DNA of 64,000 nt from NCBI RefSeq assembly GCF_040373385.1, contig NZ_JBDXXH010000012.1, positions 27,392 through 91,391 of the forward strand. The letters run 5' to 3'. Origin of the DNA: Nitratidesulfovibrio sp. (lineage in GTDB: Bacteria > Desulfobacterota > Desulfovibrionia > Desulfovibrionales > Desulfovibrionaceae). The position numbers were made by a program, and so were the translations under genes. Shown here in pieces: positions 988 through 16,896 of this stretch; within the stretch, counting starts at the first letter, position 1, and every line of letters begins with the position of its first letter. The notes below the pieces were generated by a model, which saw nothing but the letters and a program-made list of their open reading frames with translations, made no database searches and was not told where the DNA came from.

Positions 988-1305
988 CGGGCAGGCGCCC
1001 GGCGCATGGCCGCGATATTCCCGCAACCTCTTCGTATACTTCAATGTCTTGCTGAATCATCAGGGGGCTGCCGGAAACGATGCCCCGTGTCTCTCCGTCT
1101 CGCGTGATGACGAGCTGAAGTCGCCCCGGCCATATGGTCTGGGCGTCTTTCGTTGTGACGGACAGCATTGGACACCCAGGGGCATTCTTTCGCGTGCACG
1201 GATTGCAGTGGGAAGGGAAAGGTGTATTCTGGAAACATCGACCCTTCTGCGCACGTCGCCCGCGACGCTGCTCCCCCTGAATCCCTGTTACGAGGGAGGC
1301 ACGCC
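988..1305. other. Intergenic region upstream of the multicopper oxidase
   Basis: 318 bp without a convincing gene. A weak sigma-70-like pair, TTGCAG and TATTCT with a 16-base spacer, lies around 1203-1230 and could drive the oxidase gene. I see no copper-regulator operator that I would stand behind. A frame runs upstream from the oxidase through a TTG at 1168, but it lacks a ribosome-binding site and would put 46 residues before the Tat signal. Confidence 0.35.
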
Positions 1306-3255
1306 ATGTCCACGAAGGTCCATCGCAACGATCCCAGGCCGACTCGCGCCGATGCCCCCGCGCGCCTGAGCCGCCGGGATTTTCTGCTGCTTACCGGCGG
1401 AACGGCCCTGGCGCTGGGCATTGCCTCCGGATTGCCGCCATGGCTGGGCCGGGCAGGGGCGGCCACGCCCCGCATGATGTCCGGCGGGCCGCTGCCGCTA
1501 CCCGGCCAATCCGGCCTGTTCGGGGTTCTGAGCCCCACCGGACCGTTCACCCTTGCCGCCGGGCTTCAGGCCGGCTTGCTGCCCGCAACGGGCGGGCCTC
1601 TGCTGGCCTACACGACCGAACATCAGGGCATCGTCTACCATAACCCGGTGCTGGTGCTGGAGAAGGGGCAGGACTTCGCCGTGCGGATGGTCAACGGACT
1701 CGATCGGTTGGGTCCGGCACCCGTCGGCCACGGTTCCCACGGTGCCAGCGCCGGGGCAGCGCCATCCGGCCCGGACACCATCATTCACTGGCACGGCGTG
1801 GATTGCCCGTGGCAGCAGGCCGGGCATCCCATGTATGCCGTGGGACCGGGGGAGCATTACGATTACGCTTTTCCTGTAACCAACCGGGCGGGCACCTACT
1901 GGTACCACCCGCACCCGCACGGGGACACCGCGCGGCAGGCCTATCTCGGCCTGGCCTCGTTCTTCATCGTGCGCGACGACGCGGAACGCGCCTTTGCCCG
2001 CGAACTGGATCTGTCCCTGGGAACCACCGATATTCCGTTGCTGTTGCAGGATAAACGCATCGGCCCGGATGGCGGGCTGGTTTATGCACCCACCGAGGAT
2101 GAACTGTTCATGGGGTATCTGGGCGACCGGATTCTTGCCAATGGCGCCCATCTGCCCACGCTGTCCGCGTCCACCAGGCTGTACAGGTTCCGCATGCTCA
2201 ACGGTAGCACGGCGCGGATTTTCAACCTGGCTTTCACGGGAGGCGGTGCGGGCAAGGCCGGTGCGCGCCTGCCCATGACCCTGATAGCCAATGACGGCGG
2301 GTTCCTTCCCGCCCCGCTTCGGGTGGAAGGAGTGTTCCTGGCACCGGGCGAGCGGGTGGAGGTGCTGCTGGACCTGCGCGGCATGGAACTGGGGGCGCAG
2401 GTGTGGTTGCGCAATCTTCCCTTCGATCCCATGCACAACGAGATGGAGCACGGGACCGGAGAGGCTGGGCACGACAACACGGGCGGGGCCCACGCCGGTG
2501 CGGTTACGCCCACCGGTCCCGCACGGGGAATGGAAATGGGTCATGACGGTTCCATGGCCCACGGCATGAACCGTGCCACCCTGCCAGCAACAACGGGCAG
2601 CCTGGCTGGCCCAAGTGGGCCGGGTGGGCAAGGCGGAACAAGTGGGCAGGGCGGACACGCAGGGCACGGGAGCGGGCCTGCGTCCGGCAGTGCAGATGGG
2701 GAATCTGCCGGGCTGGCCGAGGGCGGCGACTACCCCATCCTGCGGGTGTCGGTGGATCGCACGGAACGTTACGACCGCAAGATCCCCGAAAAATTGCCTG
2801 TACCGGGCGAGCCCGTGCCCGCCACGGGGGGGCAGCCCGCGTTCAGTCGTGTGCTGCGGCTGGAAGCCAACGGCAAGCGCTGGACCATCGCCGGGGAAAC
2901 CTTTGTCATGGACCGTCATCCCATCACCGTGCCGGACAGGCGCCACGAGACGTGGGCCATGGAAAATGCGGCTCGCAGCATGCCGCACCCCATGCACCTG
3001 CACGGGTATTTCCTGCGGGTGCGCGAACGGCGGGGCAGCCCGGCGCAGGTGCGCGCCCTGGCCGTGGACGGCACGGGCAGGTTGCCCACCGACCTTGGCC
3101 TGAAGGATACTGTTCTGGTGTGGCCCGGTGAAACGGTGCTGGCCGACGTGAACTTCGGCAATCCCGCTTACCCCGGCGAACAGATATTCCTGTTCCACTG
3201 CCACAATCTGGAGCACGAGGACCAGGGGATGATGGTCAACGTGCGCTTGCCGTAG
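1306..3255 (+). CDS. Tat-exported multicopper oxidase with His/Met-rich loop (CueO/CopA-like)
   Basis: Periplasmic copper enzyme of 649 aa that couples substrate (probably Cu(I) or phenolics) oxidation to oxygen reduction. ATG 1306 was chosen because AGGGAGG sits just upstream and it places the twin-arginine motif SRRDFL at 22-27, followed by a hydrophobic run. All four copper-ligand motifs are visible: HWH at 161-163, HPHPH at 201-205, HPMHLH at 561-566 and HCHNLEHEDQGMM at 631-643, with the type-1 ligands Cys632, His637 and Met642. A long linker at about 380-480 is rich in His, Met and Gly (for example HNEMEHG, GMEMGHDGSMAHGM, GHAGHGSG), as in copper-tolerance oxidases. No copper gene neighbours are present. 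In an anaerobe it may serve copper or oxygen defence; that is inference. Confidence 0.9.
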   Translation: MSTKVHRNDPRPTRADAPARLSRRDFLLLTGGTALALGIASGLPPWLGRAGAATPRMMSGGPLPLPGQSGLFGVLSPTGPFTLAAGLQAGLLPATGGPLLAYTTEHQGIVYHNPVLVLEKGQDFAVRMVNGLDRLGPAPVGHGSHGASAGAAPSGPDTIIHWHGVDCPWQQAGHPMYAVGPGEHYDYAFPVTNRAGTYWYHPHPHGDTARQAYLGLASFFIVRDDAERAFARELDLSLGTTDIPLLLQDKRIGPDGGLVYAPTEDELFMGYLGDRILANGAHLPTLSASTRLYRFRMLNGSTARIFNLAFTGGGAGKAGARLPMTLIANDGGFLPAPLRVEGVFLAPGERVEVLLDLRGMELGAQVWLRNLPFDPMHNEMEHGTGEAGHDNTGGAHAGAVTPTGPARGMEMGHDGSMAHGMNRATLPATTGSLAGPSGPGGQGGTSGQGGHAGHGSGPASGSADGESAGLAEGGDYPILRVSVDRTERYDRKIPEKLPVPGEPVPATGGQPAFSRVLRLEANGKRWTIAGETFVMDRHPITVPDRRHETWAMENAARSMPHPMHLHGYFLRVRERRGSPAQVRALAVDGTGRLPTDLGLKDTVLVWPGETVLADVNFGNPAYPGEQIFLFHCHNLEHEDQGMMVNVRLP

Positions 3256-3644
3256 GCGGTTCGTCTCACGGGCATCCCGTTCGCCATCAGTTCCGGGATC
3301 CCTCTGTGTTCCGGGCGCGTTCCATGACCGCGAAATCCCCCCACGGGGATACCGTTGCCCGCTTCGCCGCCTGAAGCCGGGTCCGCATCGTCGTGCCTGC
3401 GTTGTCGACGCCCCGCAGCCAGCGGAAGGGAGTACGAAGCGCTGCTTGTCCGTACGGGAACTGGGAGGGCGGGCATGCCATGCCCCTGTCGCATCCCCGG
3501 AATTTCACGCATCATTCCCGCGAGCCATGGTGTTGTGAATTTTCCGGTCCTGCCCTAACGAGAAAGCAGTCCCCCGGGCCATGCCGCCCGACACGCATGC
3601 GGGGTCCCTTCCCGCGCAACATTCCATCACGACGCAGGTTTTCC
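3256..3644. other. Intergenic region upstream of the sigma-54 activator
   Basis: 389 bp. The only structured signal seen is a perfect 7-1-7 inverted repeat, GGGCATG C CATGCCC, at 3471-3485. It could be an operator for the downstream regulator, but a GC-rich palindrome of this size can also occur by chance. No terminator with a T-run was found after the oxidase gene. A frame open from 3393 joins the regulator, but residues before ATG 3645 do not look like protein. Confidence 0.3.
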
Positions 3645-5591
3645 ATGTCGCCCGAAGCTCCCCCCTACCGGTTCGCCCTGCTCGCGCATTCGCCCGACGT
3701 GGCCGAGTCCGTCCGGCTTTTCGTGCATGATTCCGGTTACGACACCCAGTTCCGCATCGTGAATTTCACGACGGCCGTGTCCGTGGCCAGGGAATGCCTG
3801 CAAAGCGGCACGGAAGTGGTCATCTGCCACGGCGGCACCGGCAACAGCATTCTGCAGGCCCTTGGACATTCCGTGGTCGCGATCGACCGCACGGACATGG
3901 ACGTCATCAAGACCGTGCGGCGGGCGAGCGCGGTCGGCCGGGACATGGTTCTGGCCGCGTACCTGGACGAGGAGCACGACATGGAGGCCATCGAAGAGCT
4001 TCTCGACGTGCGGCTTCACCATATAGCCTACTCCTCGTCCGAGGAACTTTTCGCCTCGATAGACGACCTGTACCGGCAGGGGGTGCGCGTTCTCGTGGGC
4101 GGCGGGGTCAGCAAGGCGTACATGGAACGCCTGGGCGGCACGGGGTTCGTCATCGCGCCGAACAGGCACAGCATCGAAAAGGCCTTCCGCCAGGCGGAGG
4201 CGATAGCTCGCCGCAAACGCCGCGAAATAATGCAGCACGAGGATCTGCTCGCGGTCTTCAAGCAACTGGGCGAAGGCGTGGTGAGCGTGGACGCGGCGGG
4301 CAGGCTTCTGTTCGTCAACCAGCGGGCGCTGAACCTGCTCCGGCTGCCGCGCGGGCTGGGGGCTCAGGCCGGGGCGATCCTCGAAAGGCTGCTTTTGCCC
4401 GAGGTGCTTGCGAGCAGGGCGCCGAGTCAGGATGCGCTGGTTGAAATAAACGGCGCGCAACTCGTGGTCGCCACGCTGCCCACCTTTATCCATCACGGCG
4501 AGCCGGGCGCGGTCGCGCTCTTTCAGGATGTCGCCGCGCTGCAGAAAATCAACCGCAAGATCGGCGAGGAACTCTACGCCAAGGGTTTTGTCGCCCGCTA
4601 TGATGTGGAGGACATTCTGGGACAAACCCCCGGCATCCGCACCCTGAAGAAGAAGATTCTAGATTTCGCCCCGACCTCGGCAGCGGTTCTCATAAACGGC
4701 GAAACCGGCACGGGGAAGGAACTCGCGGCGCACGCCCTTCACAAACGGAGCACGCGCAGCGCCCACCCCTTCGTGGCGGTGAACTGCGGCGCCGTTCCGG
4801 AAAACCTGCTGGAGAGCGAACTCTTCGGCTATGAAGAGGGCGCGTTTACCGGCGCCCGCCGAGGCGGAAAGGCCGGATTGTTCGAACTGGCGAACAACGG
4901 CACCCTGTTTCTGGACGAGGTGGGCGAGATAAGCCACGAAATGCAGTTGCGCCTGCTGCGCGTCCTCGAGGCGGGCGAAGTCATGCGCGTGGGCGGCAGC
5001 CGCTTTCTGCCGGTGGAGGTGCGGATCGTCAGCGCATCGCACAAGCCACTGTTGCAACTGGTGGCCGAACGGAAATTCCGCCGCGATCTGTACTACCGTC
5101 TTTCCACCTTGAAGATTCAGGTGCCCCCCCTGCGGGAGCGGCTGGACGACGCGGCGCTGCTCGTCCGCAAGCTGCTGCCCCGCTACGGTAAAGCGGAAAG
5201 TGTGCTCTGTCCCGAACTGGAACGGCAGATACGCACGTGGAATTGGCCGGGCAATATCCGGGAATTGCTGGCTGTCATGGAAAGCTACCTCATCCAGTTG
5301 AAAACGGACGGGTCCGACCCGGAGCTGTTCGCGGCCATACTGCAGGAGAACATGATGCCGGAACACGCCGATATCGGCGTCGCGTCGCCTTTTCCGTCAC
5401 TGTTCGATCCCGAAGGAACACTGCGGGACAACTTGAACGAGGCCAGGCGGTTCATCGTCGAACGGACCGTGACCTTTCATGGCGGGGACAGGAAGGCCGC
5501 CGCCCGCTCGCTCGGGATCAACTATTCCACCCTCTGGCGGGCCATGTCGCATGGCGGTTCACCGGAGCCTTCAGACAGCGAGTCCGGGTAG
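3645..5591 (+). CDS. Sigma-54-dependent activator with PrpR-type N-terminal sensor
   Basis: Enhancer-binding transcription activator, 648 aa. Residues about 8-195 resemble the PrpR_N ligand-binding fold, which in PrpR senses a small metabolite. Residues about 200-310 look like a PAS domain. The AAA+ domain has Walker A GETGTGKE at 352-359 and the sigma-54 contact loop GAFTGA at 399-404, followed by the Walker B-like run [10 protein letters not shown] Fis-type helix-turn-helix is at about 616-634 ([18 protein letters not shown]). No receiver domain is present, so activation is probably by ligand. It is divergent in type from its housekeeping surroundings and sits directly before the rhodanese/ABC/dehydratase genes, which I infer are its targets. 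ATG 3645 gives a clean start of the sensor domain; its ribosome site is weak. Confidence 0.88.
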
Positions 5592-5627
5592 TCCCGATCA
5601 TCCTTCCCGGCGCGATGCGCTTTTGCG

Positions 5628-5658
5628 TTTTTGCATTTGAAATGCATTTCTGCAAAAA
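5628..5658. promoter_or_regulatory. AT-rich overlapping palindromes, candidate activator-binding site
   Basis: Seen directly: TGCATTT G AAATGCA (5632-5646) and the perfect 12-bp palindrome GAAATGCATTTC (5639-5650) overlap. Both are enclosed by TTTTTGCA (5628-5635) and TGCAAAAA (5651-5658). In a GC-rich region this AT-rich symmetric block stands out. It lies about 200 bp before the sigma-54 promoter candidate at 5848, a usual enhancer distance, so I infer it is the upstream site of the activator encoded just before it. It could instead be a weak terminator for that gene. Confidence 0.5.
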
Positions 5659-5847
5659 AAACTGCTTCCGCCCCCCTTGTGACTGTCGTGCGCATGCCCG
5701 ATGTGCTGTGAAATAAGTCCAACAAGAAAGGGATGTTGCACGGGCAGTCATTTTCCGTCACTTTTATGTGGTGGAATGGAAACAGTTTATATTCAAGACT
5801 GTTACGACGGATTCCCGCTGTCCACTCCGTGCTTGGCGGGCGCGGCG

Positions 5848-5863
5848 TGGTATGCTTCGTGCT
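5848..5863 (+). promoter_or_regulatory. Candidate sigma-54 (-24/-12) promoter for the rhodanese-ABC operon
   Basis: TGGTATGCTTCGTGCT. The GG (5849-5850) and GC (5861-5862) are separated by exactly 10 bases. The sequence fits the degenerate consensus TGGYMYRN4TTGCW at every position except the first T of TTGC. A transcript would start near 5873, about 55 bases before the rhodanese ATG. Its position between a sigma-54 activator and the gene set supports it; it was found by eye only. Confidence 0.55.
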
Positions 5864-5927
5864 ATTCCCCGACCGCGCGGCGTACGCGCTGGTAGAGAAT
5901 ATCGCGGACAAAGGGAGGTCTGGTCGT

Positions 5928-7604
5928 ATGAGTGAATGTGCCGCAAAGGCAAAGTATCCCGCCACGTCGGGAGAGCGCTGGACATGGTGCACCGCCCGCG
6001 AAGCCGAAGCGCTGTTTGCCGGAACGAAAGAGCTTGCGGTTCTGGATGTGCGCGAGCAGGGGGAGTTTACCCGGGGGCATATCCTGTTGGCTTCGTGCGT
6101 GCCGCTCAGCCGGCTTGAGCTGCTTGCCGAAGACCTTGTGCCGTGCCGACGCACGCTGATCGTGCTTGTCGACGATGGCGACGAGAAATGTTCTCCCCGG
6201 GCGGAAAGGGCGGCGAGCCGCCTGGCGGACATCGGGTATTCGCAACTGCGGGTACTGAAGGGCGGCATGCGGGCCTGGCTTTCGGAAGGCCTGACGGAGG
6301 TCTCCGGGGTGGGCGCGTTGAGCAAAGGCTTCGGCGAATACGTGGAGTCGCGGCTGCACACTCCGGCGCTTGACCCGGCAGAGGTTAAGCAGCTTCTCGA
6401 ACAGGAAAGGAACTCCGTCATCATCGACGTGCGTCCGCGCGACGAATACACCCGCATGAACATCCCCGGGGGGATAAACGCCCCCGGTTGCGAGGTGCTG
6501 TACCGCTTCGCCGACCTGGTGCCCGACGCGAACACCACGGTCATCATCAACTGCGCCGGTCGCACGCGCAGCATCATCGGCACGCAGACCCTGCTGAACG
6601 CAGGCGTTCCCAACCGCGTCTTCGCGCTGAAGGGCGGGACGATGAACTGGCGGCTGTCCGGCCTTTCGCTTGCCTTCGGCACCGCCGAATGTTCCGCCCC
6701 GCCTTCCCTGAAATCCATCGAATACGCGCGGCAACGCGCCTTCGCCATAGCCGAGGCGTTCGCCATCCCTTTTGCCGAGGCCGACGAGGTGCATGCCTGG
6801 CAGAAAGAGGCGGACGGCACGACGCTGTATCTTTTCGACGTGCGGCAGCCCGAGGAATTCGAAACCGGACACTTGCCTGGCTCGCGCAACGCGCCCGGAG
6901 GCCAGTTGGTTCAATCGACTGATGAATACGCCGCTGTGCGCAACGCGCGCTTCGTCCTCGTGGACGATACGGAAATCCGCGCGATCATGACCGCGCATTG
7001 GCTCAAGCAGATGGGCCTTCCCCACGTGTACGTGCTGCGTGGGGGGCTTGGCGGGTCGGGCTTGGGGGCGGGGGGCCTGGACACGGGCACCGTCGCCCCC
7101 GCATGCAGCTATGCGCCGCCCGCGACGGAGACGATTCCGGCCCCGGTCCTTGCGGCACGGCTGGAGGCGGCCCCCGCGTGCCTGGTCATCAACGTGGGCG
7201 GCAGTGGCGCGCACCGCAAGGGGCACATCCCCAGGGCGGCCTGGGTCGCCCGGGGGTATCTGGAGCTGGCGCACGCCTGCCATCCGGACGCCACCGAGGT
7301 CGTCGTCACGTCGGACACCGAATATCATGCGCGGCTTGCCGCGGCCGACGCGGCGTTGCTGTGGGACAAGGCCCCGGTCAGGGTGCTCGCGGGCGGCAAC
7401 CCCGCCTGGGCCTCGGGCGGCTTTCCGCTGGCGACGGGCATGCCGTGGGCGTTGTGCGCCGAGGATGACGCCTGGTACAGGCCATACCAGGATCCCGACG
7501 CTTCGCCGGACGCCATGCACAGTTATTTTGATTGGGAGTTCGGACTTGTGGAGCGCATCAGAAAGGACGGTGCAGTGTCCTTTCAGTTGTTCGAGAAAAA
7601 GTGA
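5928..7604 (+). CDS. Four-domain rhodanese-like protein, one catalytic cysteine
   Basis: Cytoplasmic protein of 558 aa with no signal peptide. Start ATG 5928 has AGGGAGG nine bases upstream. Four rhodanese repeats are visible, at roughly 14-125, 145-255, 285-395 and 425-520, each with a DVR/NVG-type strand, a GH(I/L)-type turn and a GG-x-W-like end. Only repeat 2 has the active-site loop with cysteine (NCAGRTRS, Cys209). The aligned position is Asp in repeats 1 (VDDGDEK) and 3 (VDDTEIR) and Ser in repeat 4 (TSDTEYH). Rhodaneses move sulfane sulfur from thiosulfate or persulfides to thiols. It is the first gene after the candidate sigma-54 promoter and sits 56 bp before the ABC binding protein, so it probably handles sulfur from the imported compound; that role is inference. 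Confidence 0.85.
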   Translation: MSECAAKAKYPATSGERWTWCTAREAEALFAGTKELAVLDVREQGEFTRGHILLASCVPLSRLELLAEDLVPCRRTLIVLVDDGDEKCSPRAERAASRLADIGYSQLRVLKGGMRAWLSEGLTEVSGVGALSKGFGEYVESRLHTPALDPAEVKQLLEQERNSVIIDVRPRDEYTRMNIPGGINAPGCEVLYRFADLVPDANTTVIINCAGRTRSIIGTQTLLNAGVPNRVFALKGGTMNWRLSGLSLAFGTAECSAPPSLKSIEYARQRAFAIAEAFAIPFAEADEVHAWQKEADGTTLYLFDVRQPEEFETGHLPGSRNAPGGQLVQSTDEYAAVRNARFVLVDDTEIRAIMTAHWLKQMGLPHVYVLRGGLGGSGLGAGGLDTGTVAPACSYAPPATETIPAPVLAARLEAAPACLVINVGGSGAHRKGHIPRAAWVARGYLELAHACHPDATEVVVTSDTEYHARLAAADAALLWDKAPVRVLAGGNPAWASGGFPLATGMPWALCAEDDAWYRPYQDPDASPDAMHSYFDWEFGLVERIRKDGAVSFQLFEKK

Positions 7605-7660
7605 CACGTATTGCAGAGGCTCTCTGGATATGCACAACATTTTTCTGATTCGGAGGAGCA

Positions 7661-9178
7661 ATGTACACACTGATCAGATCATTGTTTTCGGCCCTGCTCA
7701 TCCTTGCCATGTGCGCCAGCACGGCATTCGCCAAGGGCGATACGCTGACCGTCGGCATCGTCCAGGGCTGTAAGGCGCTGGACCCCCAGAACACGATAGC
7801 CGGCGTGACCTACGGCGTCGTCGTGCACATCAACGAAACGCTTGTAGGCTTGGAGGACGGAAAGCTCGTTCCGCTTCTGGCGCAAAGCTGGAAAATGCTG
7901 GACGACAAGGTTTCGTACGAATTCAAGCTGAAGCCGGGCGTGAAGTTCCATAATGGCGAGACCATGACCGCGGACGACGTCGTCTTTTCCTTCAAGCGGG
8001 CGCTCAGCCCCGCTGGCGTGGCCATCAAGTCGTTCTCCATGTATCTGGCCGACGCGAAGAAGATCGACGACCACACCGTGGTGCTGCGGGCCGTTAGTCC
8101 CATGGGCGAAACCTTTCTCGGCAGCTTGAGCCACCCGTGGGCGTCCATCTTCAGCAAGAAGGCTGTGGAAGCTTCCGGCCCGGATTACGGGCAGCACCCC
8201 GTGGGCACCGGCAAGTTCAGGTTGAAGGAACTGGTGCCCGGCGACCGCGTGGTGCTGGAGCGTTTCGACGGCTACCACGGCACGAAGGCCCGCGTCAGGA
8301 ATCTGGTGTTCCGTTCCATCATCGAGGCCACCAGCCGTACCATCGAACTGGAAAGCGGCGCCGTCGACACGATCATGGACGTCGCCCCTGTCGACGTCAG
8401 CCGCATCAAGGATAACCCGGCCCTCGAGGTGGTGTCCGTGCCGTCGTCCCGTAGCTACCACATCGGTTTCAACCTGAAGAAGGCCCCCTTCGACAATCGC
8501 AAGGTGCGCGAAGCCGTGAACATGGCCCTCAACCGTCCGGGCATCATCAAGGTAGTCTTCCGGGGCCAAGCCGAAGCGGCACGCGGCCCGGTGCCCTCCA
8601 CCATCACCTACAACAAGTTCGGGAATTCCCCTGAAACGCCCTACGATCCGGCGGCGGCCAGGAAGCTGCTGCAGGAAGCCGGCTTTCCAAAAGGGTTCAA
8701 GACGGCCCTGCTGATTCCCGACCGCACCGACTATCTGGGCATCGCCACGGTGGTCCAGAACAACCTTCGGGAAATAGGCATCGACATGGAAGTCAAGGTC
8801 ATCGAGTCCGGCTCCTTCCTTGATGTGGTCCGCGAAGCCGACCATGATCCCTATCTCACCAACTGGGGGGGCAACGTGCCCACGGCGGACCCGTTCTTCT
8901 CCATGACGCCGCTGTTCCACTCGCGAGGCATCGGTCAGACGAACCGCTACTACTACAGCAACCCCCGGGTGGACGAGTTGCTCGACAAGGGCGTCCAGAC
9001 TCCCGAAGGCCCGGAAAAGGCGGCGATCTACGGCGAGATATGGGACATCCTCAACGCCGACCTGCCCCAGACGACGCTGCTGGCCCCAATGAACTTGTAC
9101 GGCAAAGTGAAGAACCTGAAAGGCATCGAGTATTCGCCCACGGTGATCAACTACTTCGGCAATGCGTACTTCGAATAG
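7661..9178 (+). CDS. ABC transporter periplasmic substrate-binding protein, family 5 (DppA/OppA-like)
   Basis: 505 aa with a Sec signal peptide (hydrophobic run to about residue 24, cleavage likely after STAFA). It has typical family-5 features: LVPLLAQSWKM, FKLKPGVKFHNGE, ADDVVFSFKRALSP and VREAVNMALNR. The family binds di- and oligopeptides, nickel chelates, opines, glutathione and some oligosaccharides, so the ligand cannot be named from sequence. ATG 7661 follows a GGAGGA ribosome site. It is the first transporter gene of the cluster and is separated from the permease by a strong hairpin, as expected if the binding protein is made in excess. Confidence 0.9.
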   Translation: MYTLIRSLFSALLILAMCASTAFAKGDTLTVGIVQGCKALDPQNTIAGVTYGVVVHINETLVGLEDGKLVPLLAQSWKMLDDKVSYEFKLKPGVKFHNGETMTADDVVFSFKRALSPAGVAIKSFSMYLADAKKIDDHTVVLRAVSPMGETFLGSLSHPWASIFSKKAVEASGPDYGQHPVGTGKFRLKELVPGDRVVLERFDGYHGTKARVRNLVFRSIIEATSRTIELESGAVDTIMDVAPVDVSRIKDNPALEVVSVPSSRSYHIGFNLKKAPFDNRKVREAVNMALNRPGIIKVVFRGQAEAARGPVPSTITYNKFGNSPETPYDPAAARKLLQEAGFPKGFKTALLIPDRTDYLGIATVVQNNLREIGIDMEVKVIESGSFLDVVREADHDPYLTNWGGNVPTADPFFSMTPLFHSRGIGQTNRYYYSNPRVDELLDKGVQTPEGPEKAAIYGEIWDILNADLPQTTLLAPMNLYGKVKNLKGIEYSPTVINYFGNAYFE

Positions 9179-9189
9179 CTAGAAACCGT

Positions 9190-9234
9190 TCCTTTCCGGC
9201 CGGTACGGGTGCTGCCCGTACCGGCCGGAAAGGA
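9190..9234 (+). terminator. Perfect 20-bp stem hairpin between binding protein and permease genes
   Basis: Arms 9190-9209 and 9215-9234 are exact inverted copies with a 5-base loop (TGCTG). No T-run follows. In ABC operons such intercistronic hairpins usually stabilise the upstream message or partially stop transcription, giving more binding protein than permease. Classification as partial terminator or RNA-stability element is inference; the structure itself is plain in the sequence. Confidence 0.7.
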
Positions 9235-9321
9235 CAGGCGCATATTGCCGCCGGTTGCAGGCCACAGGGGGCACGGCGCCCGCTATCTGCACATCCCGTC
9301 CCGGCATGAGGAGGCGCATGC

Positions 9322-10251
9322 ATGTTCCCGTACCTGATTCGCAGGATTCTCGCGATGATACCCGTAGCCGTCGGGGTGTCGCTCATCATCTTCACGCTGC
9401 TGTACATCACCCCCGGCGATCCCGCCCGCCTGTTCCTGGGCCAGGAGGCAAACGAGGAAAGCCTTCAGGAATTCCGCCGCGAGCACGGGTTGGACAAGCC
9501 GTTCCTCACCCGCTACCTCTCCTTCGCTTACGATGTCGTCGTGCATCAGGACCTTGGCCGGTCCTACGCCACGCGCCGCCCCGTGTCGGGGGAGATAGCG
9601 TCCACGTTTCCGGTCACGCTGAACCTGTCGCTGGGGGCCATCGCGCTTGCCACCGCGCTGGGCATGACGTTCGGGGTGGTCTGCGCCGTCAAGCAGTATT
9701 CCATCTTCGACAACGTCACCATGGTCATCGCCATGCTCGGCATTTCCACCCCCATATTCTACCTGGGCATCCTGCTCATTCTCTGGTTTTCGGTGCGGCT
9801 GCGATGGTTGCCGTCCTCCGGCTTCGACACCATGAGCCAGCGCCTGCTGCCGTGGATCACGCTGTCGGCGACCTCGATGTCGATCATCACCCGCATGACG
9901 CGCTCGAGCATGCTCGAGGTCATCCGCTCGGACTACATCCGCACCGCGCGGGCCAAGGGGCAGAAAGAGTCGGTCATCATCATCAAGCATGCCCTGCGCA
10001 ACGCGCTCATCCCTATCATAACCATCGTCGGCATCCAGTTGGGCCATCTCATGGGCGGCTCGATTCTCGCCGAATCCGTCTTTTCCATTCCGGGCGTCGG
10101 TCGTCTTGCGGTGGACGGCATCAAGGCCCGCGACTACCCCGTCGTGCAGGGGGCAGTGCTGTACATAGCCATGGCGTACATGGTTCTCAATCTCATCGTG
10201 GATTTCCTGTACGCCTGGGTGGATCCCCGCCTGCGCACCCGTTACAGGTGA
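9322..10251 (+). CDS. ABC transporter permease, DppB family
   Basis: 309 aa integral membrane subunit of the peptide/nickel/opine importer. It starts MFPYLIRRILAMIPVAVGV, the standard DppB first helix, and shows about six hydrophobic segments. The cytoplasmic ATPase-contact loop is recognisable around IRSDYIRTARAKGQKE. Start ATG 9322 follows GAGGAG. It forms the channel with the DppC-type partner 61 bp downstream. Confidence 0.92.
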   Translation: MFPYLIRRILAMIPVAVGVSLIIFTLLYITPGDPARLFLGQEANEESLQEFRREHGLDKPFLTRYLSFAYDVVVHQDLGRSYATRRPVSGEIASTFPVTLNLSLGAIALATALGMTFGVVCAVKQYSIFDNVTMVIAMLGISTPIFYLGILLILWFSVRLRWLPSSGFDTMSQRLLPWITLSATSMSIITRMTRSSMLEVIRSDYIRTARAKGQKESVIIIKHALRNALIPIITIVGIQLGHLMGGSILAESVFSIPGVGRLAVDGIKARDYPVVQGAVLYIAMAYMVLNLIVDFLYAWVDPRLRTRYR

Positions 10252-10312
10252 TTCCGCCGCGCCGCGCTGTCCCGCCCGGTAAACAGGTTTTCATCCCATC
10301 AAGAGGGGCGAT

Positions 10313-11170
10313 ATGTTCACGTTGCGTAAGAACAGCAATCTTCATCTGACGCTGGTGCGCCTGAGCCGCAACAGGCTGGCGGTGCTGGGCCTGATAGTTC
10401 TACTGCTGCTTGTGGCGACGGCGGTATTCGCGCCGTGGCTCGCGCCGTACCATTTCGCGACGCAGGACCTACTGGCCGCCTTCGAGCCGCCAAGCTGGGC
10501 GCATCCGCTGGGTACGGACGACTTCGGCCGCGACATTCTGAGCCGCATCATCTACGGCGCGCGGGTGTCCCTGCAGGTGGGCATTTTCGCGGTGGCCATC
10601 GCCATGGTGTTCGGCGGCGTGCTGGGGGCCATCTCTGGGTATTACGGCGGGCGCATCGATGGCGTGATCATGCGCGTCATGGATATCCTGCTCTCCATTC
10701 CGCAGATATTGCTTGCCATCTCCATTGCGGCGGCGCTTGGTCCCGGGCTGTTGAACTTGACCATCGCGGTGGGCGTCGCCGCGCTGCCCACCTTCGCCCG
10801 CGTGGTGCGCGGGGCCGTGATGTCGATCGTCGGGCAGGAGTTCATCGAGGCCGCCCGCTGCATGGGGGCCTCGGACGCATGGATCATCGCGCGCCACATC
10901 CTGCCCAATTGCAGCGCGCCCATCATCGTGCAGTCGACCCTGCGCGTGGCGCAGGCCATTCTGGCCGCCGCGGCGCTGAGTTTTCTCGGCCTCGGCATCC
11001 AGCCGCCGTTTCCCGAATGGGGCGGCATGCTGGCGGGCGCGCGCGGCTACGTGCGCGACTATGCCTACATGACCATTTTTCCTGGGCTTGCCATCATGAT
11101 CACCATCATGGCCCTCAACTTCCTTGGTGACGGACTGCGCGACGCCATGGACCCCAAGATGAAAAGATAG
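10313..11170 (+). CDS. ABC transporter permease, DppC family
   Basis: 285 aa inner-membrane subunit, partner of the preceding permease. It has a short cytoplasmic N-terminus and a first helix around LAVLGLIVLLLLVATAVF. The family sequence HPLGTDDFGRDILSRIIYGA follows, and the EAA-type loop is EFIEAARCMGASD. The start has an AGAGGGG ribosome site. The gene for the first ATPase begins 11 bp after its stop, indicating a single transcript. Confidence 0.92.
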   Translation: MFTLRKNSNLHLTLVRLSRNRLAVLGLIVLLLLVATAVFAPWLAPYHFATQDLLAAFEPPSWAHPLGTDDFGRDILSRIIYGARVSLQVGIFAVAIAMVFGGVLGAISGYYGGRIDGVIMRVMDILLSIPQILLAISIAAALGPGLLNLTIAVGVAALPTFARVVRGAVMSIVGQEFIEAARCMGASDAWIIARHILPNCSAPIIVQSTLRVAQAILAAAALSFLGLGIQPPFPEWGGMLAGARGYVRDYAYMTIFPGLAIMITIMALNFLGDGLRDAMDPKMKR

Positions 11171-11181
11171 GGGAGACCCAC

Positions 11182-12153
11182 ATGCCGCAACACGACGAAA
11201 TTCTTTTGGACATCAGTGACCTGCGTGTCCAGTTCCATACGGACACGGGCCTCGTGAAGGCCGTCGAAGGTCTCAACCTGCGCCTGCGCAAGGGAGAGGC
11301 CCTGGGCCTGGCGGGAGAGACGGGCGCGGGAAAGACCACCACCGCCCTTGCGATCATGCAGATCATCGCCTCGCCCCCCGGCCGGATAGCCAGCGGCAGC
11401 ATTCACTTCGAGGGAAAGGACATGCTGGCGCTGTCCGAAGAGGAAAAGCGGCATGTCCGGGGCGGAAAGATATCCATGATATTTCAGGACCCCATGACCT
11501 CGCTGAACCCCGTGCTGCCGGTGCAGGAGCAGATCGCCGAAATGGTGCGCCTGCACAATGCCGTGACCGAGGCCGAGGCGCTCGACAAGGCCCGAGACAT
11601 GCTGGGGCTGGTGGGCATCCGTCCGGAAAGGGGAGGGGATTACCCGCACCAGTTCAGCGGCGGCATGAAGCAGCGGGTCGTGATCGCCATCGCGCTTGCC
11701 TGCAACCCCTCGCTGCTGATCGCCGATGAACCCACCACCGCCCTCGACGTGACCATCCAGGCGCAAGTTCTGGAAGTCATGCGCGAACTGAAACAGCATT
11801 ACAACACCGCGACCATCCTCATCAGCCACGACCTCGGCGTCATCGCCGAATTGTGCGATTCGGTGGCCGTCATGTACGCCGGGCGCATAGTCGAGACGGC
11901 GGACGCGAAAAGCCTGTACGCCAATCCGCTGCATCCTTATACGCAGGGGCTTTTCCAGTCCATTCCCGACCTGACGAAGAATGTGAAGCGCCTTTTCTCC
12001 CTGCCGGGGCTTCCGCCCGACCCCACCGATCTGCCTGCCGGCTGCTGCTTTTCCCCGCGCTGCGAGCATGCTGACGATACGTGCAGGAACATGCAGCCCG
12101 AATTGCGCGAAATAACGGCGGGGCATTTCGCGGCCTGCTTCAAGGCCGCCTGA
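11182..12153 (+). CDS. ABC transporter ATP-binding protein, DppD family
   Basis: 323 aa cytoplasmic ATPase. Walker A GETGAGKT is at 45-52, the signature is the normal FSGGMKQRV, Walker B is LLIADEPT, and the switch histidine is in LISHDLGV. The C-terminal oligopeptide-transporter extension carries the usual cysteine set (CCFSPRC, then DTC, then FAAC), which in relatives binds an iron-sulfur cluster. It pairs with the DppF-type subunit 38 bp downstream to energise import. Confidence 0.92.
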
Positions 12154-12191
12154 AACACCGGCTCTCGCCCTTGCCGACGAAGGAACATGCC

Positions 12192-13187
12192 ATGAATACC
12201 GGACACGATACCCCGCTCATCCAGACCCGCAATCTGAAGAAGCACTTCGCGACGCCCAGGGGCGCCCTGCACGCCGTGGACGATGTCGACATCTCCATCG
12301 CCAAGGGCGAAACGCTGGGCCTGGTCGGGGAGTCGGGCTGCGGCAAGTCCACGTTCGGGCGAGTGGTCATCCGCCTGCTGGATGCGACGGCAGGCTCCGT
12401 GCTGTTCAACGGCGCGGACATAGTCAGCTACAACGCCAAGGATCTGCGCGCATTCCGGAAAAAGGCGCAGATGGTTTTCCAGGATCCCTATTCCTCGCTG
12501 AATCCTCGTCTGTCCGTGGAGCAACTCATTTCCGAGCCGTTGCGCATCCACAGGGTCTGTGTCGACGAGCGGGAGATCACCGGGCGGGTCAGGCAACTGA
12601 TGGATATCGTCGGACTTGCCCAGCGGCTGGCCACGTCCTTTCCGCACGAACTGGACGGGGGGCGCCGGCAGCGCATCGGCGTGGCCAGGGCGCTTGCGCT
12701 CAACCCGGAATTCATCGTGCTGGACGAGCCGGTTTCGTCGCTCGACGTGTGCATCCAGGCGCAGATACTGAACCTGTTGCAGGATCTCAAGGACGAATTC
12801 CGATACACCTACCTGTTCATCACGCACGACCTCAGCGTGGTCCGGCACATTTCCGACCGCATCGCGGTCATGTACCTTGGCAAGGTGATAGAGTTGGCGG
12901 ACCATTTGGAAATATTCAATAATCCTTCGCATCCCTATTCCCAGGCCCTGCTTTCCGCCATTCCCATTCCGCGCATCGACGCCTCGCGCAAGAACAGGAT
13001 ACTTCTGGAGGGTGACGTGCCGAGTCCCATCAATCCCCCCGCCGGTTGCCGGTTTTACGGACGCTGCCCGTCCCGGCGGGACGATTGCAAGACGCGTTCG
13101 CCCGAGTTGGAGCAGATCGCCCCAGGCCATTTCGTGGCCTGTTTTCATCCTGGCCCCATCCGAAAACCGGGGGGGTGCGGGGCGTGA
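12192..13187 (+). CDS. ABC transporter ATP-binding protein, DppF family, with Asp in the signature motif
   Basis: 331 aa second ATPase of the importer. Walker A GESGCGKS starts at residue 46, Walker B is [12 protein letters not shown] and the switch histidine is in FITHDLSVV. The ABC signature reads LDGGRRQRI, with Asp155 where most ATPases have the LSGGQ serine. I believe this variant recurs in a branch of OppF/DppF proteins, so it is unlikely to be a sequencing error. The C-terminal cysteine set (CRFYGRC, DDC, VACF) is present. ATG 12192 follows AAGGA; upstream in-frame codons overlap the preceding gene. Confidence 0.9.
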
Positions 13188-13233
13188 CGGGCGCCGCACG
13201 CGGGATCGGACACGCGACAACGGGGGAGATGCC

Positions 13234-13836
13234 GTGAACCGAAAAACGTTGCGCAAGATACTCGAACCCCGGCCGGACGAGGCGGACGCGCCGCGCTGGC
13301 AGGCAGCGGTCCCCTTGGTCACCAATCCGTTCCTGCTGATCGAAGTGGCGCAGTTCGCGCTGGTCGGAGGCTCGGTCGTCCTGATTTCCCTGTGCGTCGG
13401 CCTTTTCTGGACGGACGGGGGCCTGACGCTGCCCGACCTCGTCATTGCGGTGCAGGCCGCCCTTGCGACGGCGGTGGCGATTGTCATCGGGTTCGCCGCC
13501 ATTGCCGTCCTGTTTTTCGACAATCGGTACTTCGCCCTGTACCAGATGGATTCTGGAGGTATCTACCATGAAGGAACCAGGGGGCACAGTGAAGGCGATA
13601 CCGTCCTCTGCCGCAACGTGCTGCCGTACCCCGTGGCCGGGGCAGTGAGGGCACGGCGTACGCGCAGCCGGTACTTGCCGTGGGAAAAGGTGCGCTCGTT
13701 CCAGAGCGTTCCTTCGCTGCGGGTGATCATTCTGCGCCGGGGCTTCTGGCACATGCTCCACTTGTACATGCCAAGCGCCGAAACGCACGAAACCGTCGCG
13801 CGCTACCTTGCGACGCGGTTGAAGAACGCTGGATAG
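13234..13836 (+). CDS. Small two-helix membrane protein of unknown function
   Basis: 200 aa, no family recognised. GTG 13234 follows GGGGGAGA. A 35-residue charged N-terminus is followed by two membrane segments (about 36-62 and 70-95), then a soluble domain of about 100 residues that ends at the membrane-distal C-terminus. The soluble part has YLPWEKVRSFQSV, which resembles the PH-like soluble half of small membrane proteins, but I would not assign it. It lies between the importer and the dehydratase and is co-directional with both, so it may be part of the same unit. Confidence 0.7.
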   Translation: MNRKTLRKILEPRPDEADAPRWQAAVPLVTNPFLLIEVAQFALVGGSVVLISLCVGLFWTDGGLTLPDLVIAVQAALATAVAIVIGFAAIAVLFFDNRYFALYQMDSGGIYHEGTRGHSEGDTVLCRNVLPYPVAGAVRARRTRSRYLPWEKVRSFQSVPSLRVIILRRGFWHMLHLYMPSAETHETVARYLATRLKNAG

Positions 13837-13900
13837 CCTTTTTCGCAGGTCCGCAAGGCGGCGTTTGTCCGTTCAACACTCAACGCAACAGGGGCCGGGT

Positions 13901-15094
13901 ATGAAAATCACCGCAGTGGAAGTTTTTGACCTTGATGTCGAGGGAACCGCCATTCCCTGGCATCCCGTGGTCGTGCGCATCCATACGGATGAGGGCATCA
14001 GTGGGGTTGGCGAGGCGGGTCTGGCGTATGGCAGCGGGCACTCGGGCGCCGCCGGCATGCTGGTGAACCTGGCCGAGGAGTTTTTGCTCGGTAAGGACCC
14101 CACGGAAACGGAAAGCATCTGGAACACACTGCAAACGCATACGTTCTGGGGGTATAGCCCGGGTCCGGTCATCTACGGGGCGATCAGCGCCATCGACATC
14201 GCCTTGTGGGACATCAAGGGCAAGGCTCTGGGCCTGCCCGTGTACAAACTGCTGGGCGGCCCGTGCCGCGAAAGGATCAGGACCTACGCGAGCCAGGTGC
14301 AGTTCGGCTGGAGCCCCGACAAGGAGGTCTGGCTGCACAGGCCGGAAGATTACGCCCGCGTGACGCGTATCATGGTGGACGAAGGCTTCACCTGCGTGAA
14401 AGTCAACCCGCTGCGCTTCGGTCCCAACGGCGAATTTCTTCCCCAGATCGGCGGCAAGCTGCCAGCCAGTACCGTCAGCGCCATGGCCGACAGGGTGCGG
14501 GCGGTGCGCGAGGAAGGCGGCCCCGACCTCGACATCCTCATCGAGTTCAACTCCCGCTGCGCCACCGAGGCCGCCGTGCAACTCGGACAGCGTCTGGAGG
14601 AATTCGACATCATGTACCTTGAAGAGCCGGTACACTTCATGGACATGAGTCTCATGCGCGACATGAAGGCCCGCGTGAACATCCCGCTCGCAGGCGGCGA
14701 GCGTCTGTACACCCGCTGGCAGTTCCTGCCCTACCTGCAGGAACGCATCATCAGCCTTGCCCAGCCCGACATCGGCCTGGCCGGCGGCTTCACCGAGGTG
14801 AAGAAGATTTGCGATCTCGCCCACATCTTCGACGTGCAGACGCAGATGCACGTCTGCGGCGGTCCCGTGGGCGTGGCCGCAAGCCTGCACATGGCCGCGG
14901 CCGTGGTGAACTACACCCTGCACGAGCACCATGTGCGCCTGCGCCACCCCGGCACCCGGGCCATCGTGAAGGAGGACTACCAACCGCACAACGGCTGCTT
15001 CGAACTGCCCGAGGGGCCGGGGCTGGGGATCGAACTCAATGATGAGGTCGTGAACAGGTCGCCCAGGAAGTGCGTGAAGCTGAATAACGCCTGA
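13901..15094 (+). CDS. Enolase-superfamily acid-sugar dehydratase (galactonate/mannonate dehydratase-like)
   Basis: 397 aa cytoplasmic Mg-dependent enzyme of the mandelate racemase group. It has the capping domain at the N-terminus and a barrel with Lys167-Val-Asn169 (a KxN pair as in DgoD). The metal-ligand candidates are Glu215 (IEFN), the LEEP run at 240-243 and Glu267 (GGER). The acid-base dyad candidates are Asp290 (QPD) and His317 (MHVCGG), with Glu342 (HEHH) completing the site. This pattern predicts abstraction of a proton next to a carboxylate followed by loss of water from a sugar acid. The actual substrate is unknown. As the last gene of the sigma-54 locus it suggests that the imported compound contains, or is converted to, a polyhydroxy acid. 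Confidence 0.85.
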   Translation: MKITAVEVFDLDVEGTAIPWHPVVVRIHTDEGISGVGEAGLAYGSGHSGAAGMLVNLAEEFLLGKDPTETESIWNTLQTHTFWGYSPGPVIYGAISAIDIALWDIKGKALGLPVYKLLGGPCRERIRTYASQVQFGWSPDKEVWLHRPEDYARVTRIMVDEGFTCVKVNPLRFGPNGEFLPQIGGKLPASTVSAMADRVRAVREEGGPDLDILIEFNSRCATEAAVQLGQRLEEFDIMYLEEPVHFMDMSLMRDMKARVNIPLAGGERLYTRWQFLPYLQERIISLAQPDIGLAGGFTEVKKICDLAHIFDVQTQMHVCGGPVGVAASLHMAAAVVNYTLHEHHVRLRHPGTRAIVKEDYQPHNGCFELPEGPGLGIELNDEVVNRSPRKCVKLNNA

Positions 15095-15228
15095 GGGACC
15101 GGTGCGGCGTGGGCGAAGGGGAGGGCTGCCGGGCGGGGATGTTCCCCATGCCGGTGAGCCGCTTCCCTCATGACGGCACCCCCGAGGCCGCGTGCCCGGA
15201 AGGCTTGGCGCGCCCCGCGTGCATGAAG

Positions 15229-15262
15229 AAGCCCGCCGACCCCATGCAGGGGCGGCGGGCTT
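15229..15262 (-). terminator. Terminator hairpin of rho, possibly shared with the opposing gene
   Basis: AAGCCCGCCG (15229-15238) pairs with CGGCGGGCTT (15253-15262). CCCC/GGGG continues the stem after a one-base bulge, with loop ATGCA. It lies 36 bp past the rho stop on the minus strand and 135 bp past the dehydratase stop on the plus strand. The minus side is followed by TTCTTCATG, moderately T-rich. Confidence 0.65.
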
Positions 15263-15297
15263 GGTGTTTCCGTGTCGGGAACCGTGGCGCTGGTGCG

Positions 15298-16548
15298 CTA
15301 CTTGTTCATCACGTTCAGGAATTCGCGGTTGCTCTTGGTGGCGCGCATCTTGTCCAGCAGGAATTCCATGCTGTCGATGGGCGACATGGGCGCCAGGATC
15401 TTGCGCAGGATCCACACGCGGTTGAGCACTTCGTCCGACAGCAGCAGGTCTTCCTTGCGGGTGCCGGTGCGGTTGATGTCGATGGCCGGGAACACGCGCT
15501 TTTCGGCCAGGTGGCGTTCCAGGTAGATTTCCATGTTGCCGGTGCCCTTGAACTCTTCAAAGATCACTTCGTCCATGCGCGAGCCGGTGTCGATGAGGGC
15601 GGTGGCGATGATGGTCAGGCTGCCGCCTTCCTCGATATTGCGCGCCGCGCCAAAGAAGCGCTTGGGGCGTTGCAGGGCGTTGGCGTCCAGACCGCCGGAC
15701 AGCACGCGACCGGAAGAGGGGGTGACGGCGTTGTATGCGCGGCCCAGACGGGTGATGGAGTCGAGCAGGATGACCACGTCGCGCTTGCGTTCCACCAGGC
15801 GCTTGGCCTTTTCCAGCACCATCTCGCAGACCTGCACGTGACGCTGCGGGGGTTCGTCGAAGGTGGAGCTGACCACTTCGGCGTTCTTCACCGTGCGTTC
15901 CATGTCGGTCACTTCCTCTGGCCGCTCGTCGATGAGCAGCACGATGAGGTACGCATCCGGATGGTTGGCGTTGATGGAGTTGGCGATGGTCTGGAGCAGG
16001 ATGGTCTTGCCGGTGCGGGGGGGCGCCACGATCAGGCCGCGCTGGCCGCGGCCCACGGGGGCCATCATGTCGATGACGCGGCTGGAGTAGTTCTTGTCCC
16101 CGTTCTCCATGGTGAACTGGCGGTCGGGGTAGATGGGCGTAAGGTTGTCGAACAGAACGAGGTTCTTGGCGTTTTCCGGCGGCTCGAAGCCGATCTCGGT
16201 CACCTTCAGCAGGGCGAAGTAGCGTTCGCCTTCCTTGGGCGGGCGGATCTGGCCGGAAACCACGTCACCCTTGCGCAGGTTGAAGCGGCGAATCTGCGAC
16301 GGCGAAACATAGATGTCGTCGGGGCCGGGCATGTAGCTGCACAGCGGTGAACGCAGAAAGCCGAAACCGTCGGGCAGTATTTCCAGCACGCCGTCGCCGT
16401 AGATGGCGCCGTTCTGCGAAGCGCAGGCCTGAAGCAGGGCAAAGATCAGCTCCTGCTTGCGCATGCCGCTGGCGCCTTCGACGTTGTATTGCTCGGCAAG
16501 CTCCATGAGCTCGCTCATGCTCTTGATCTTGAGTTCCGAAAGATTCAT
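15298..16548 (-). CDS. rho: Transcription termination factor Rho
   Basis: 416 aa RNA-dependent ATPase that ends transcription at C-rich untranslated RNA. It starts [19 protein letters not shown], as in the family. The RNA-binding OSB fold follows ([33 protein letters not shown]), then Walker A PRTGKT and the secondary RNA-site region. Length matches E. coli Rho (419). An in-frame ATG at 16587 would add [13 protein letters not shown]; neither start has a strong ribosome site, and I chose the one matching the family. It is the last gene of the minus-strand block. Confidence 0.96.
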
Positions 16549-16896
16549 GGCCGTCTCGGAACCCTGGACGTTCTTCTTTTTCCTCATAGGCGTGGTGGGG
16601 GACTGCTTTTGGAAGGGTGTGGGGGTGTATGGAAGGGTGTCATTACAGCCTACCGCACGGCACGAAAGACCGCACAATGGCGATCCGTACGCAAGCGAAG
16701 ACTGTTGTCGGAATGACGGTATGAAGGAAAATCGTTGTGGTGGACGGGCGGGAACACTGTGTCGGGTCCGAAGCCGGGTTTTCGTTGCCCGGTAAGGAGG
16801 GAAGGAGACCCATAAGAGAGGTGTTGCAATGTTCGGTTGCTTCCACCCGCCGTACAAGGGGCTACCTAGCCCATTCGACAGGGGATGGCAAGGGGT
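16549..16896. other. Intergenic region between CarD-like gene and rho
   Basis: 348 bp upstream of rho on the minus strand. A short stem CCGGG/CCCGG with a 9-base loop lies at 16773-16791. The region is the natural place for a rho leader and its autogenous control, but I could not identify C-rich, G-poor runs or a clear promoter by eye. No gene seen. Confidence 0.3.

What the first reader, a model, noticed from the sequence alone, without database searches (positions are those of the whole stretch)
3645..15094. Uncharacterised sigma-54 uptake/catabolic locus combining a PrpR-type activator, four-domain rhodanese, full peptide-type ABC importer and enolase-superfamily dehydratase
Seen: eight co-directional genes with short spacings, a sigma-54 activator first and a -24/-12 promoter candidate right after it. 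Known: PrpR_N domains sense small metabolites; family-5 importers carry peptides, opines or chelates; DgoD-like enolase enzymes dehydrate sugar acids; rhodaneses handle sulfane sulfur. I know of no described pathway that joins these four. Inference: an inducible route for a sulfur-bearing sugar-acid or opine-like compound.
Basis: partly seen in the sequence, partly recalled or inferred. Interest (0 to 1): 0.75.

Follow-up and report, generated by a model that had tools for sequence, protein, structure and literature searches.

The report
Sigma-54 rhodanese and importer operon
A Desulfovibrio-like bacterium carries a switchable gene set that probably imports and breaks down a small, perhaps sulfur-bearing, organic acid; its parts are familiar and recur in relatives, but what it imports is still unknown.

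Summary
The locus is real and slightly larger than described: nine co-directional genes, namely a PrpR_N/sigma-54 activator, a four-domain rhodanese, a complete family-5 ABC importer, a missed ~200-aa membrane protein (13234-13836) and an enolase-superfamily enzyme. The rhodanese most likely starts at 5928, behind a -24/-12 element at 5848-5863; 7 of 7 relatives with the same activator beside this rhodanese have such an element.

It joins two modules that recur in the family. Module A, activator plus rhodanese, is linked in 8 of 11 rhodaneses of its clade, with exchangeable transporters (DASS 3, TTT 3, this importer 2). Module B, importer plus membrane protein, occurs in 4 of 6 importer loci; an enolase-superfamily gene adjoins the importer in 3 of 6. 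A same-genus genome has A+B with a glycine-reductase-type selenoprotein operon instead of the enolase-type enzyme. All parts in one operon were seen only in the window.

The rhodanese is of the PA2603 type, elsewhere found beside thiol dioxygenases and sulfonate-type importers, which favours but does not show a sulfur-bearing substrate. The 'dehydratase' misses the galactonate-dehydratase cut-off and has Asn where 21 of 25 aligned rows have His. New combination of known parts; substrate open.

The parts
3645..5591 (+). PrpR_N / sigma-54 AAA+ / HTH transcription activator (PAS match weak)
   Evidence: orthologous activators beside rhodanese in 7 relatives
5848..5863 (+). -24/-12 (sigma-54 type) promoter element TGGTATGCTTCGTGCT
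   Evidence: score 12.9 of 15.2, shuffle level 13.0; similar element in 7 of 7 activator-linked relatives
5928..7604 (+). four-domain (PA2603-type) rhodanese; one conserved Cys in CAGRTRS; ORF open from 5733, start at 5928 preferred
7661..9178 (+). family-5 solute-binding protein of the ABC importer
9322..10251 (+). ABC importer permease B
10313..11170 (+). ABC importer permease C
11182..12153 (+). ABC importer ATPase D
12192..13187 (+). ABC importer ATPase F (ORF open from 12081; ATG at 12192 preferred)
13234..13836 (+). orfX: ~200-aa putative membrane protein of unknown family, conserved beside the importer in 4 of 6 importer loci
13901..15094 (+). enolase-superfamily (MR/MLE, DgoD-like) enzyme with Asn217 in place of the usual His; ORF open from 13865

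Best explanation
An inducible uptake-and-catabolism operon for a small organic acid that most likely carries sulfur, made by joining an activator-rhodanese module to an importer-orfX-enolase-type module. Inferred course: the compound binds the PrpR_N domain; the activator drives sigma-54 RNA polymerase at 5848-5863; the five-part ABC importer brings the compound in; the rhodanese takes sulfane or thiol sulfur from the compound or its product onto the Cys of CAGRTRS and passes it to the cell's sulfur pool; the enolase-superfamily enzyme abstracts the alpha-proton of the carboxylate and eliminates the beta group (or epimerises the acid), giving a keto acid for central metabolism. Shown by sequence comparison: the genes, the operon layout, the conserved promoter element, the module partners, the catalytic residues. 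Inferred: ligand, presence of sulfur, order of steps, fate of products.
For: Seven of seven activator-linked relatives have a -24/-12 element in the gap; the activators linked to this rhodanese fall on one side of a branch, 93/91. A transporter adjoins the rhodanese in 9 of 11 clade members (DASS 3, TTT 3, this importer 2, SsuA-type 1). Rhodanese, SBP, B, C, D, F and orfX are colinear in G001; enzyme, orfX, SBP, B, C, D, F form one run in G546. This rhodanese type lies beside cysteine dioxygenase or cupin genes in the three plasmid records read of 117 with a match, with mercaptosuccinate dioxygenase in Advenella and in a unit with 3-mercaptopropionate dioxygenase in P. protegens (passages).
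Against: No gene in the window shows that the substrate has sulfur. Deleting the PA2603 homologue in P. protegens did not significantly change extracellular 3-mercaptopropionate. Two of 11 clade rhodaneses (L053, L054, short contigs) show neither activator nor transporter in the stretch held, and L061 has no activator in its flank. In G546 the importer run is not beside the rhodanese, which is on another contig. The whole set in one operon was seen only once. The window's promoter score alone is borderline, and two other gaps passed their own shuffle levels.
Confidence: 0.48

Rival explanations
1. A sulfur-free organic- or sugar-acid operon: importer and enolase-type enzyme do the catabolism, and the rhodanese is a passenger of the activator module with a general sulfur-relay or stress role.
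For: The closest NCBIfam model of the enzyme is galactonate dehydratase. Its relatives in G015 and Sporomusa lie with LarA-like isomerase, aldolase-like or TTT genes. The importer runs in G546 and G689 were not found beside a rhodanese.
Against: Rhodanese and importer stay together in both same-genus genomes that have the rhodanese. The enzyme is below the DgoD cut-off and lacks the usual His. No KDPG-aldolase-family match in the genome (0 of 3 genomes; control 8 of 14). Not excluded: other aldolase families; 2 HpcH/HpaI matches lie elsewhere in the genome.
Confidence: 0.27
2. A peptide, glutathione-type or amino-acid-derivative importer whose cargo is released as thiols or persulfides handled by the rhodanese; the enolase-type enzyme is a racemase or epimerase of an amino-acid derivative.
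For: GsiB is the best NCBIfam model of the binding protein (239 bits) and YliB/GsiB (1uqw) its second PDB match. A distant importer (G655, SBP 39%) adjoins an ORF that looks like a peptidase (L177 3607-4881, by eye). In G001 the unit holds glycine/sarcosine/betaine-reductase-type genes.
Against: GsiB score is far under its cut-off of 594; there are two separate ATPases where GsiA is one long protein (profile length 623). No peptidase or transpeptidase was recognised among the genes identified in the window, G001 and G546 loci. The G001 GrdB-like protein is below the glycine, sarcosine and betaine equivalog cut-offs.
Confidence: 0.15
3. Sulfur acquisition or sulfur-compound respiration: the import serves to obtain sulfur (thiosulfate-like or sulfonate-like), and the carbon enzymes are side business.
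For: DASS and SsuA-type transporters beside the rhodanese in relatives; TauE-like in the more distant L139.
Against: TTT and family-5 importers with carbon-acid enzymes (Grd, enolase type) point to an organic acid; PrpR_N senses organic acids in its best-known member (recalled).
Confidence: 0.1

Closest known systems
PA2603-type rhodanese in thiol-dioxygenase clusters (3-mercaptopropionate / mercaptosuccinate degradation; PMC12947264, PMC5373536, passages read)
   Same: Same rhodanese type (1yt8, 2.8e-118), same single Cys motif, transporter beside it
   Different: No thiol dioxygenase among the window genes; sigma-54 PrpR-type control where the plasmid relatives read have LysR genes nearby; the PA2603 identity of the Advenella rhodanese was not tested
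PrpR, propionate-catabolism activator
   Same: PrpR_N plus sigma-54 AAA+ domain
   Different: 382 bits against an equivalog cut-off of 499.2; about 80 residues longer at the N side of the PrpR_N match as read from the ORF; no prp genes in the locus
D-galactonate dehydratase (DgoD) and the unassigned enzymes 2o56, 4e6m, 2gl5, 2ox4
   Same: Fold family; K167, E215, E241, E267, D290 and H317 kept
   Different: 261.6 bits against 311; Asn217 for His; at most 50% identity to relatives in the family search
Family-5 (Opp/Dpp/Gsi) ABC importers
   Same: Binding protein, two permeases, two ATPases with oligo_HPY
   Different: None of the five proteins reaches an equivalog cut-off among the NCBIfam rows listed
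Glycine/sarcosine/betaine reductase (Grd) operons
   Same: In same-genus genome G001 the same activator, rhodanese, importer and orfX lie within such an operon
   Different: The window's genome has no GrdB or GrdA match

Membership tests
PA2603-type four-domain rhodanese | full-length similarity to 1yt8 | tested here: met
   residues 91-620 of the 623-aa ORF, E 2.8e-118
PA2603-type four-domain rhodanese | single conserved Cys in domain 2 (CAGRTRS) | tested here: met
   26 of 26 aligned sequences
PA2603-type four-domain rhodanese | thiol dioxygenase beside it | tested here: not met
   no dioxygenase among the window genes scanned; seen in plasmid relatives
PA2603-type four-domain rhodanese | sulfurtransferase activity | not testable with these tools
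   needs an enzyme assay
PrpR (propionate regulator) | PrpR_N domain plus sigma-54 activation domain | tested here: met
PrpR (propionate regulator) | PrpR equivalog cut-off | tested here: not met
   TIGR02329 382 against 499.2; PRK15424 370 against 703
sigma-54-dependent operon | -24/-12 element before the first structural gene | tested here: met
   5848-5863; borderline alone, similar element in 7 of 7 activator-linked relatives
sigma-54-dependent operon | transcription requires RpoN and the activator | not testable with these tools
   needs expression data
D-galactonate dehydratase (DgoD) | DgoD equivalog cut-off | tested here: not met
   261.6 against 311
D-galactonate dehydratase (DgoD) | metal ligands, Lys and His-Asp pair of the barrel | tested here: met
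   E215, E241, E267, K167, H317, D290; their roles are recalled from the superfamily
D-galactonate dehydratase (DgoD) | His two residues after the first metal ligand (general acid in E. coli DgoD, recalled) | tested here: not met
   Asn217; 21 of 25 aligned rows have His, 3 Asn (window included), 1 Ser
Glutathione importer GsiABCD | GsiB cut-off | tested here: not met
   239.1 against 594
Glycine reductase-type operon | GrdB and GrdA present | tested here: not met
   no match in the window's genome; present in G001

The most novel reading that the evidence does not exclude
The enolase-superfamily enzyme is not a sugar-acid dehydratase but a C-S lyase: it removes the alpha-proton of a mercapto- or thioether-carboxylate and expels thiolate or sulfide, which needs no general acid, so the usual His has been lost to Asn; the rhodanese then captures the released sulfur. 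The only other Asn-bearing enzymes in the aligned set (Sinorhizobium L144, Methylobacterium L190) lie near a MalY/PatB-family gene, a family that includes C-S lyases (recalled), and a molybdopterin oxidoreductase. Against it: the enzyme beside the importer in G546 keeps the His, and the Asn-bearing enzymes do not form one group in the tree.
Probability: 0.08. Interest if true: 0.8.

Novelty: new variant of a known kind. Interest (0 to 1): 0.42.

Why it matters
It reveals a recurring sigma-54 activator-rhodanese module in Desulfovibrio-like bacteria with exchangeable transporters and an unknown inducer. Because one activator group accompanies several unrelated transporters, identifying a single ligand would probably explain all these loci, and would show what this rhodanese type, known in aerobes beside thiol dioxygenases, does in their absence. 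The same importer feeding a selenoprotein reductase in one species and an enolase-type enzyme in another gives a second handle on the substrate.

Tried and rejected
Rejected: that the four parts are one fixed pathway; together in one operon they were seen only in the window. Rejected: the palindrome TGCATTTGAAATGCA (5632-5646) as activator site; 15 of 60 shuffles were as good, and in only 2 of 8 gaps was the best inverted repeat matched by at most 1 of 60 shuffles. Rejected: that the window's genome keeps the Grd enzymes elsewhere (no GrdB or GrdA match). Led nowhere: first scan of named genomes with the enolase-type enzyme (3 stretches, none confirmed); PMC9765439 has no PA2603 passage in its main text; paper searches for 'four rhodanese domains' and for PrpR + rhodanese + Desulfovibrio gave 0 papers; the D. 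vulgaris sigma-54 regulome paper (PMC4641369, passages only) has 0 hits for PrpR and sulfurtransferase, and 0 for rhodanese in the listing; the search for the DgoD general acid gave no text on it (listing only). The tree of enolase-type enzymes leaves the window row on a long, unplaced branch. Not done: structure of orfX; comparison of the insertion site with same-genus genomes; a search for downstream enzymes beyond two aldolase families; a check that the host reduces sulfate.
Full report
What is there. Nine genes run on the + strand from 3645 to 15094. Domain scans confirm the activator, rhodanese, complete family-5 ABC importer and enolase-superfamily enzyme. A ninth gene, orfX (13234-13836), lies between the second ATPase and the enolase-type enzyme. 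No Pfam or NCBIfam model matches it, but it is 56% identical to a gene in the same place in same-genus genome G001. The 2-kb bins over 4-14 kb have G+C of 0.62-0.64, lower than most other bins of the window. The + strand ORF 15109-16350 has no family match and is probably not a gene; an ORF on the other strand at 15298-16857 has the codon-position pattern of a gene.

Regulation. The activator carries PrpR_N, a full sigma-54 AAA+ domain, an HTH match just over its cut-off and PAS matches under theirs; GAFTGA can be read in it. It is the only PrpR_N match in the genome. With a simple weight table the best -24/-12 site in the gap after it is 5848-5863: 12.9 of 15.2, against a 95% shuffle level of 13.0. 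In L055, L056, L057, L058 and L138 the corresponding gap scores 14.05-14.72 against levels of 12.35-13.0. In L183 and L184 the same kind of site (TGGCA[C/T]...TGCT) was read by eye among listed TGGCA occurrences, not scored. So 7 of 7 activator-linked relatives carry it. Against specificity, the window gap before permease B (12.72 against 12.5) and the gap before the G001 binding protein (13.5 against 12.15, perhaps a second promoter) also passed. The window site lies inside the longest rhodanese ORF, so the start at 5928, behind GGGAGG, is preferred. A terminator-like site at 5609-5629 would separate activator and operon, but such sites are no more frequent than in shuffles. No significant activator-binding palindrome was found.

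Module A: activator plus rhodanese. Of 288 genomes of the family, 16 have this rhodanese at E <= 1e-60. Eleven, window included, form a clade (100/100); the other five, all from genus g20, group with three proteobacterial plasmid sequences (98/94). In 8 of the 11 the related activator lies beside the rhodanese or separated from it only by a transporter or Grd genes: window, G001 (L056), L055, L057, L058, L138, L183, L184. In the window it precedes the operon on the same strand; in the other seven it is divergent. These activators fall on one side of a branch (93/91; 94% of bootstrap trees). Activators 39-47% identical in G018, G010 and G023 lie by ORFs that look like TRAP or DASS and TauE transporters (by eye); these genomes have no full-length rhodanese of this type. 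The transporter beside the rhodanese is DASS in three loci, TTT in three and this importer in two. L061 has an SsuA-type importer with an ATPase match and no activator in the flank held. L053 and L054, on contigs of 5.1 and 3.9 kb, show neither in what is held.

Module B: importer plus orfX, with an enolase-type or other enzyme. The binding protein at E <= 1e-100 is in 5 of 288 genomes, 6 loci: window, G001, G546, G689 (two) and G655. orfX adjoins the importer in 4 of 6 (window, G001, G546, G689:C103); G689:C59 is cut by the contig end on that side, and G655 (SBP 39%) showed none. An enolase-superfamily gene adjoins it in 3 of 6: the window; G546, where enzyme (46%), orfX (frame-broken), SBP, B, C, D and F form one run; and G689:C59, with a different MR/MLE enzyme (25%). 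G689:C103 ends about 1 kb past orfX and cannot be judged there. G001 has no match to this enzyme; its unit carries GrdE- and GrdB-like genes, the latter with UGA at codon 347, a TrxB gene, ORFs that look like GrdC and GrdD, and GrdA. The window's genome has neither GrdB nor GrdA. The enolase-type enzyme is in 21 of 288 genomes at E <= 1e-60. Of 12 such loci compared (L162-L172 and L037), none showed this binding protein or the rhodanese; two had an ABC ATPase match (44% in L165, 31% in L172).

What the rhodanese type suggests. It matches P. aeruginosa 1yt8 over residues 91-620 of the ORF. All 26 homologues aligned share one Cys, in domain 2 (CAGRTRS); in no other column do more than 12 of 26 have Cys. 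Of 117 plasmid records with a match three were read: the rhodanese adjoins a cysteine dioxygenase gene (Sodalis, Azospirillum) or a cupin gene (Ti plasmid), with TTT, ABC or SsuC-type transporter genes nearby. From passages of papers: a rhodanese-related sulfurtransferase is clustered with mercaptosuccinate dioxygenase in Advenella (PMC5373536); the PA2603 homologue appears to be in a unit with 3-mercaptopropionate dioxygenase in P. protegens, but its deletion had no significant effect on 3-mercaptopropionate (PMC12947264). In G545 and G546 the rhodanese is followed by ORFs that look like a CoA ligase and a 2-oxoacid:ferredoxin oxidoreductase (by eye) and an SsuA-type importer. These point to organosulfur anions, indirectly.

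What the enolase-type enzyme suggests. DgoD is its best NCBIfam model, below the cut-off. K167, E215, E241, E267, D290 and H317 are kept. Position 217 is Asn; 21 of 25 aligned rows have His, and the non-His rows are the window, L144 and L190 (Asn) and L192 (Ser). Position 169 is Asn where 20 of 25 have Asp, but the row annotated dgoD (L193) also has Asn there. In E. coli DgoD the His at this spacing is the general acid (recalled, from no call). The enzyme beside the importer in G546 keeps His, so the cargo may still be a hydroxy acid. No KDPG-aldolase-family match was found in G000, G001 or G015 (0 of 3; 8 of 14 controls have one); G000 has 2 HpcH/HpaI matches, on other contigs.

Reading. The window locus is a fusion of two recurring modules under one sigma-54 activator, best explained as inducible uptake and breakdown of a small organic acid that probably bears sulfur. 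The anatomy is well supported; the substrate is inference. No description of the module turned up in the paper searches, which cover open-licence papers only and were seen mostly as listings.

Noticed in passing
L034 and L050 (G001:C83, about 48,800-66,700): A glycine-reductase-type operon with a Sec-containing GrdB-like protein (UGA at codon 347), a related importer, rhodanese and orfX inside it; the GrdB/E-like proteins are under the equivalog cut-offs, so the substrate is unassigned.
   Followed up: partly
L034:4838-6932 (-): The sigma-54 activator of G001 matches in two frames, so it looks frame-broken in that assembly.
   Followed up: no
L185 (G545) 4932-14277 and L174 (G546) 163-8993: A more distant copy of the rhodanese (about 40%) is followed by ORFs that look like a CoA ligase, a ferredoxin (G545) and a three-subunit 2-oxoacid:ferredoxin oxidoreductase, then an SsuA-type importer.
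   Followed up: partly
L163 (G582:C28, 3.9 kb): Copies of the enolase-type gene in tandem: two full and two cut by the contig ends.
   Followed up: no
L144 (Sinorhizobium) and L190 (Methylobacterium): Plasmid copies of the enolase-type gene with Asn at the His position lie near a MalY/PatB-family gene, a molybdopterin oxidoreductase and an amino-acid ABC importer.
   Followed up: partly
window 1168-3255: A multicopper oxidase (CueO-like, below the equivalog cut-offs) lies just upstream of the activator.
   Followed up: no
L167 (G483:C38): An enolase-type gene with LarA-like, TctA and TctC matches lies within about 10 kb of a separate Grd-type gene set (GrdB, TrxB, GrdC, GrdD matches).
   Followed up: no
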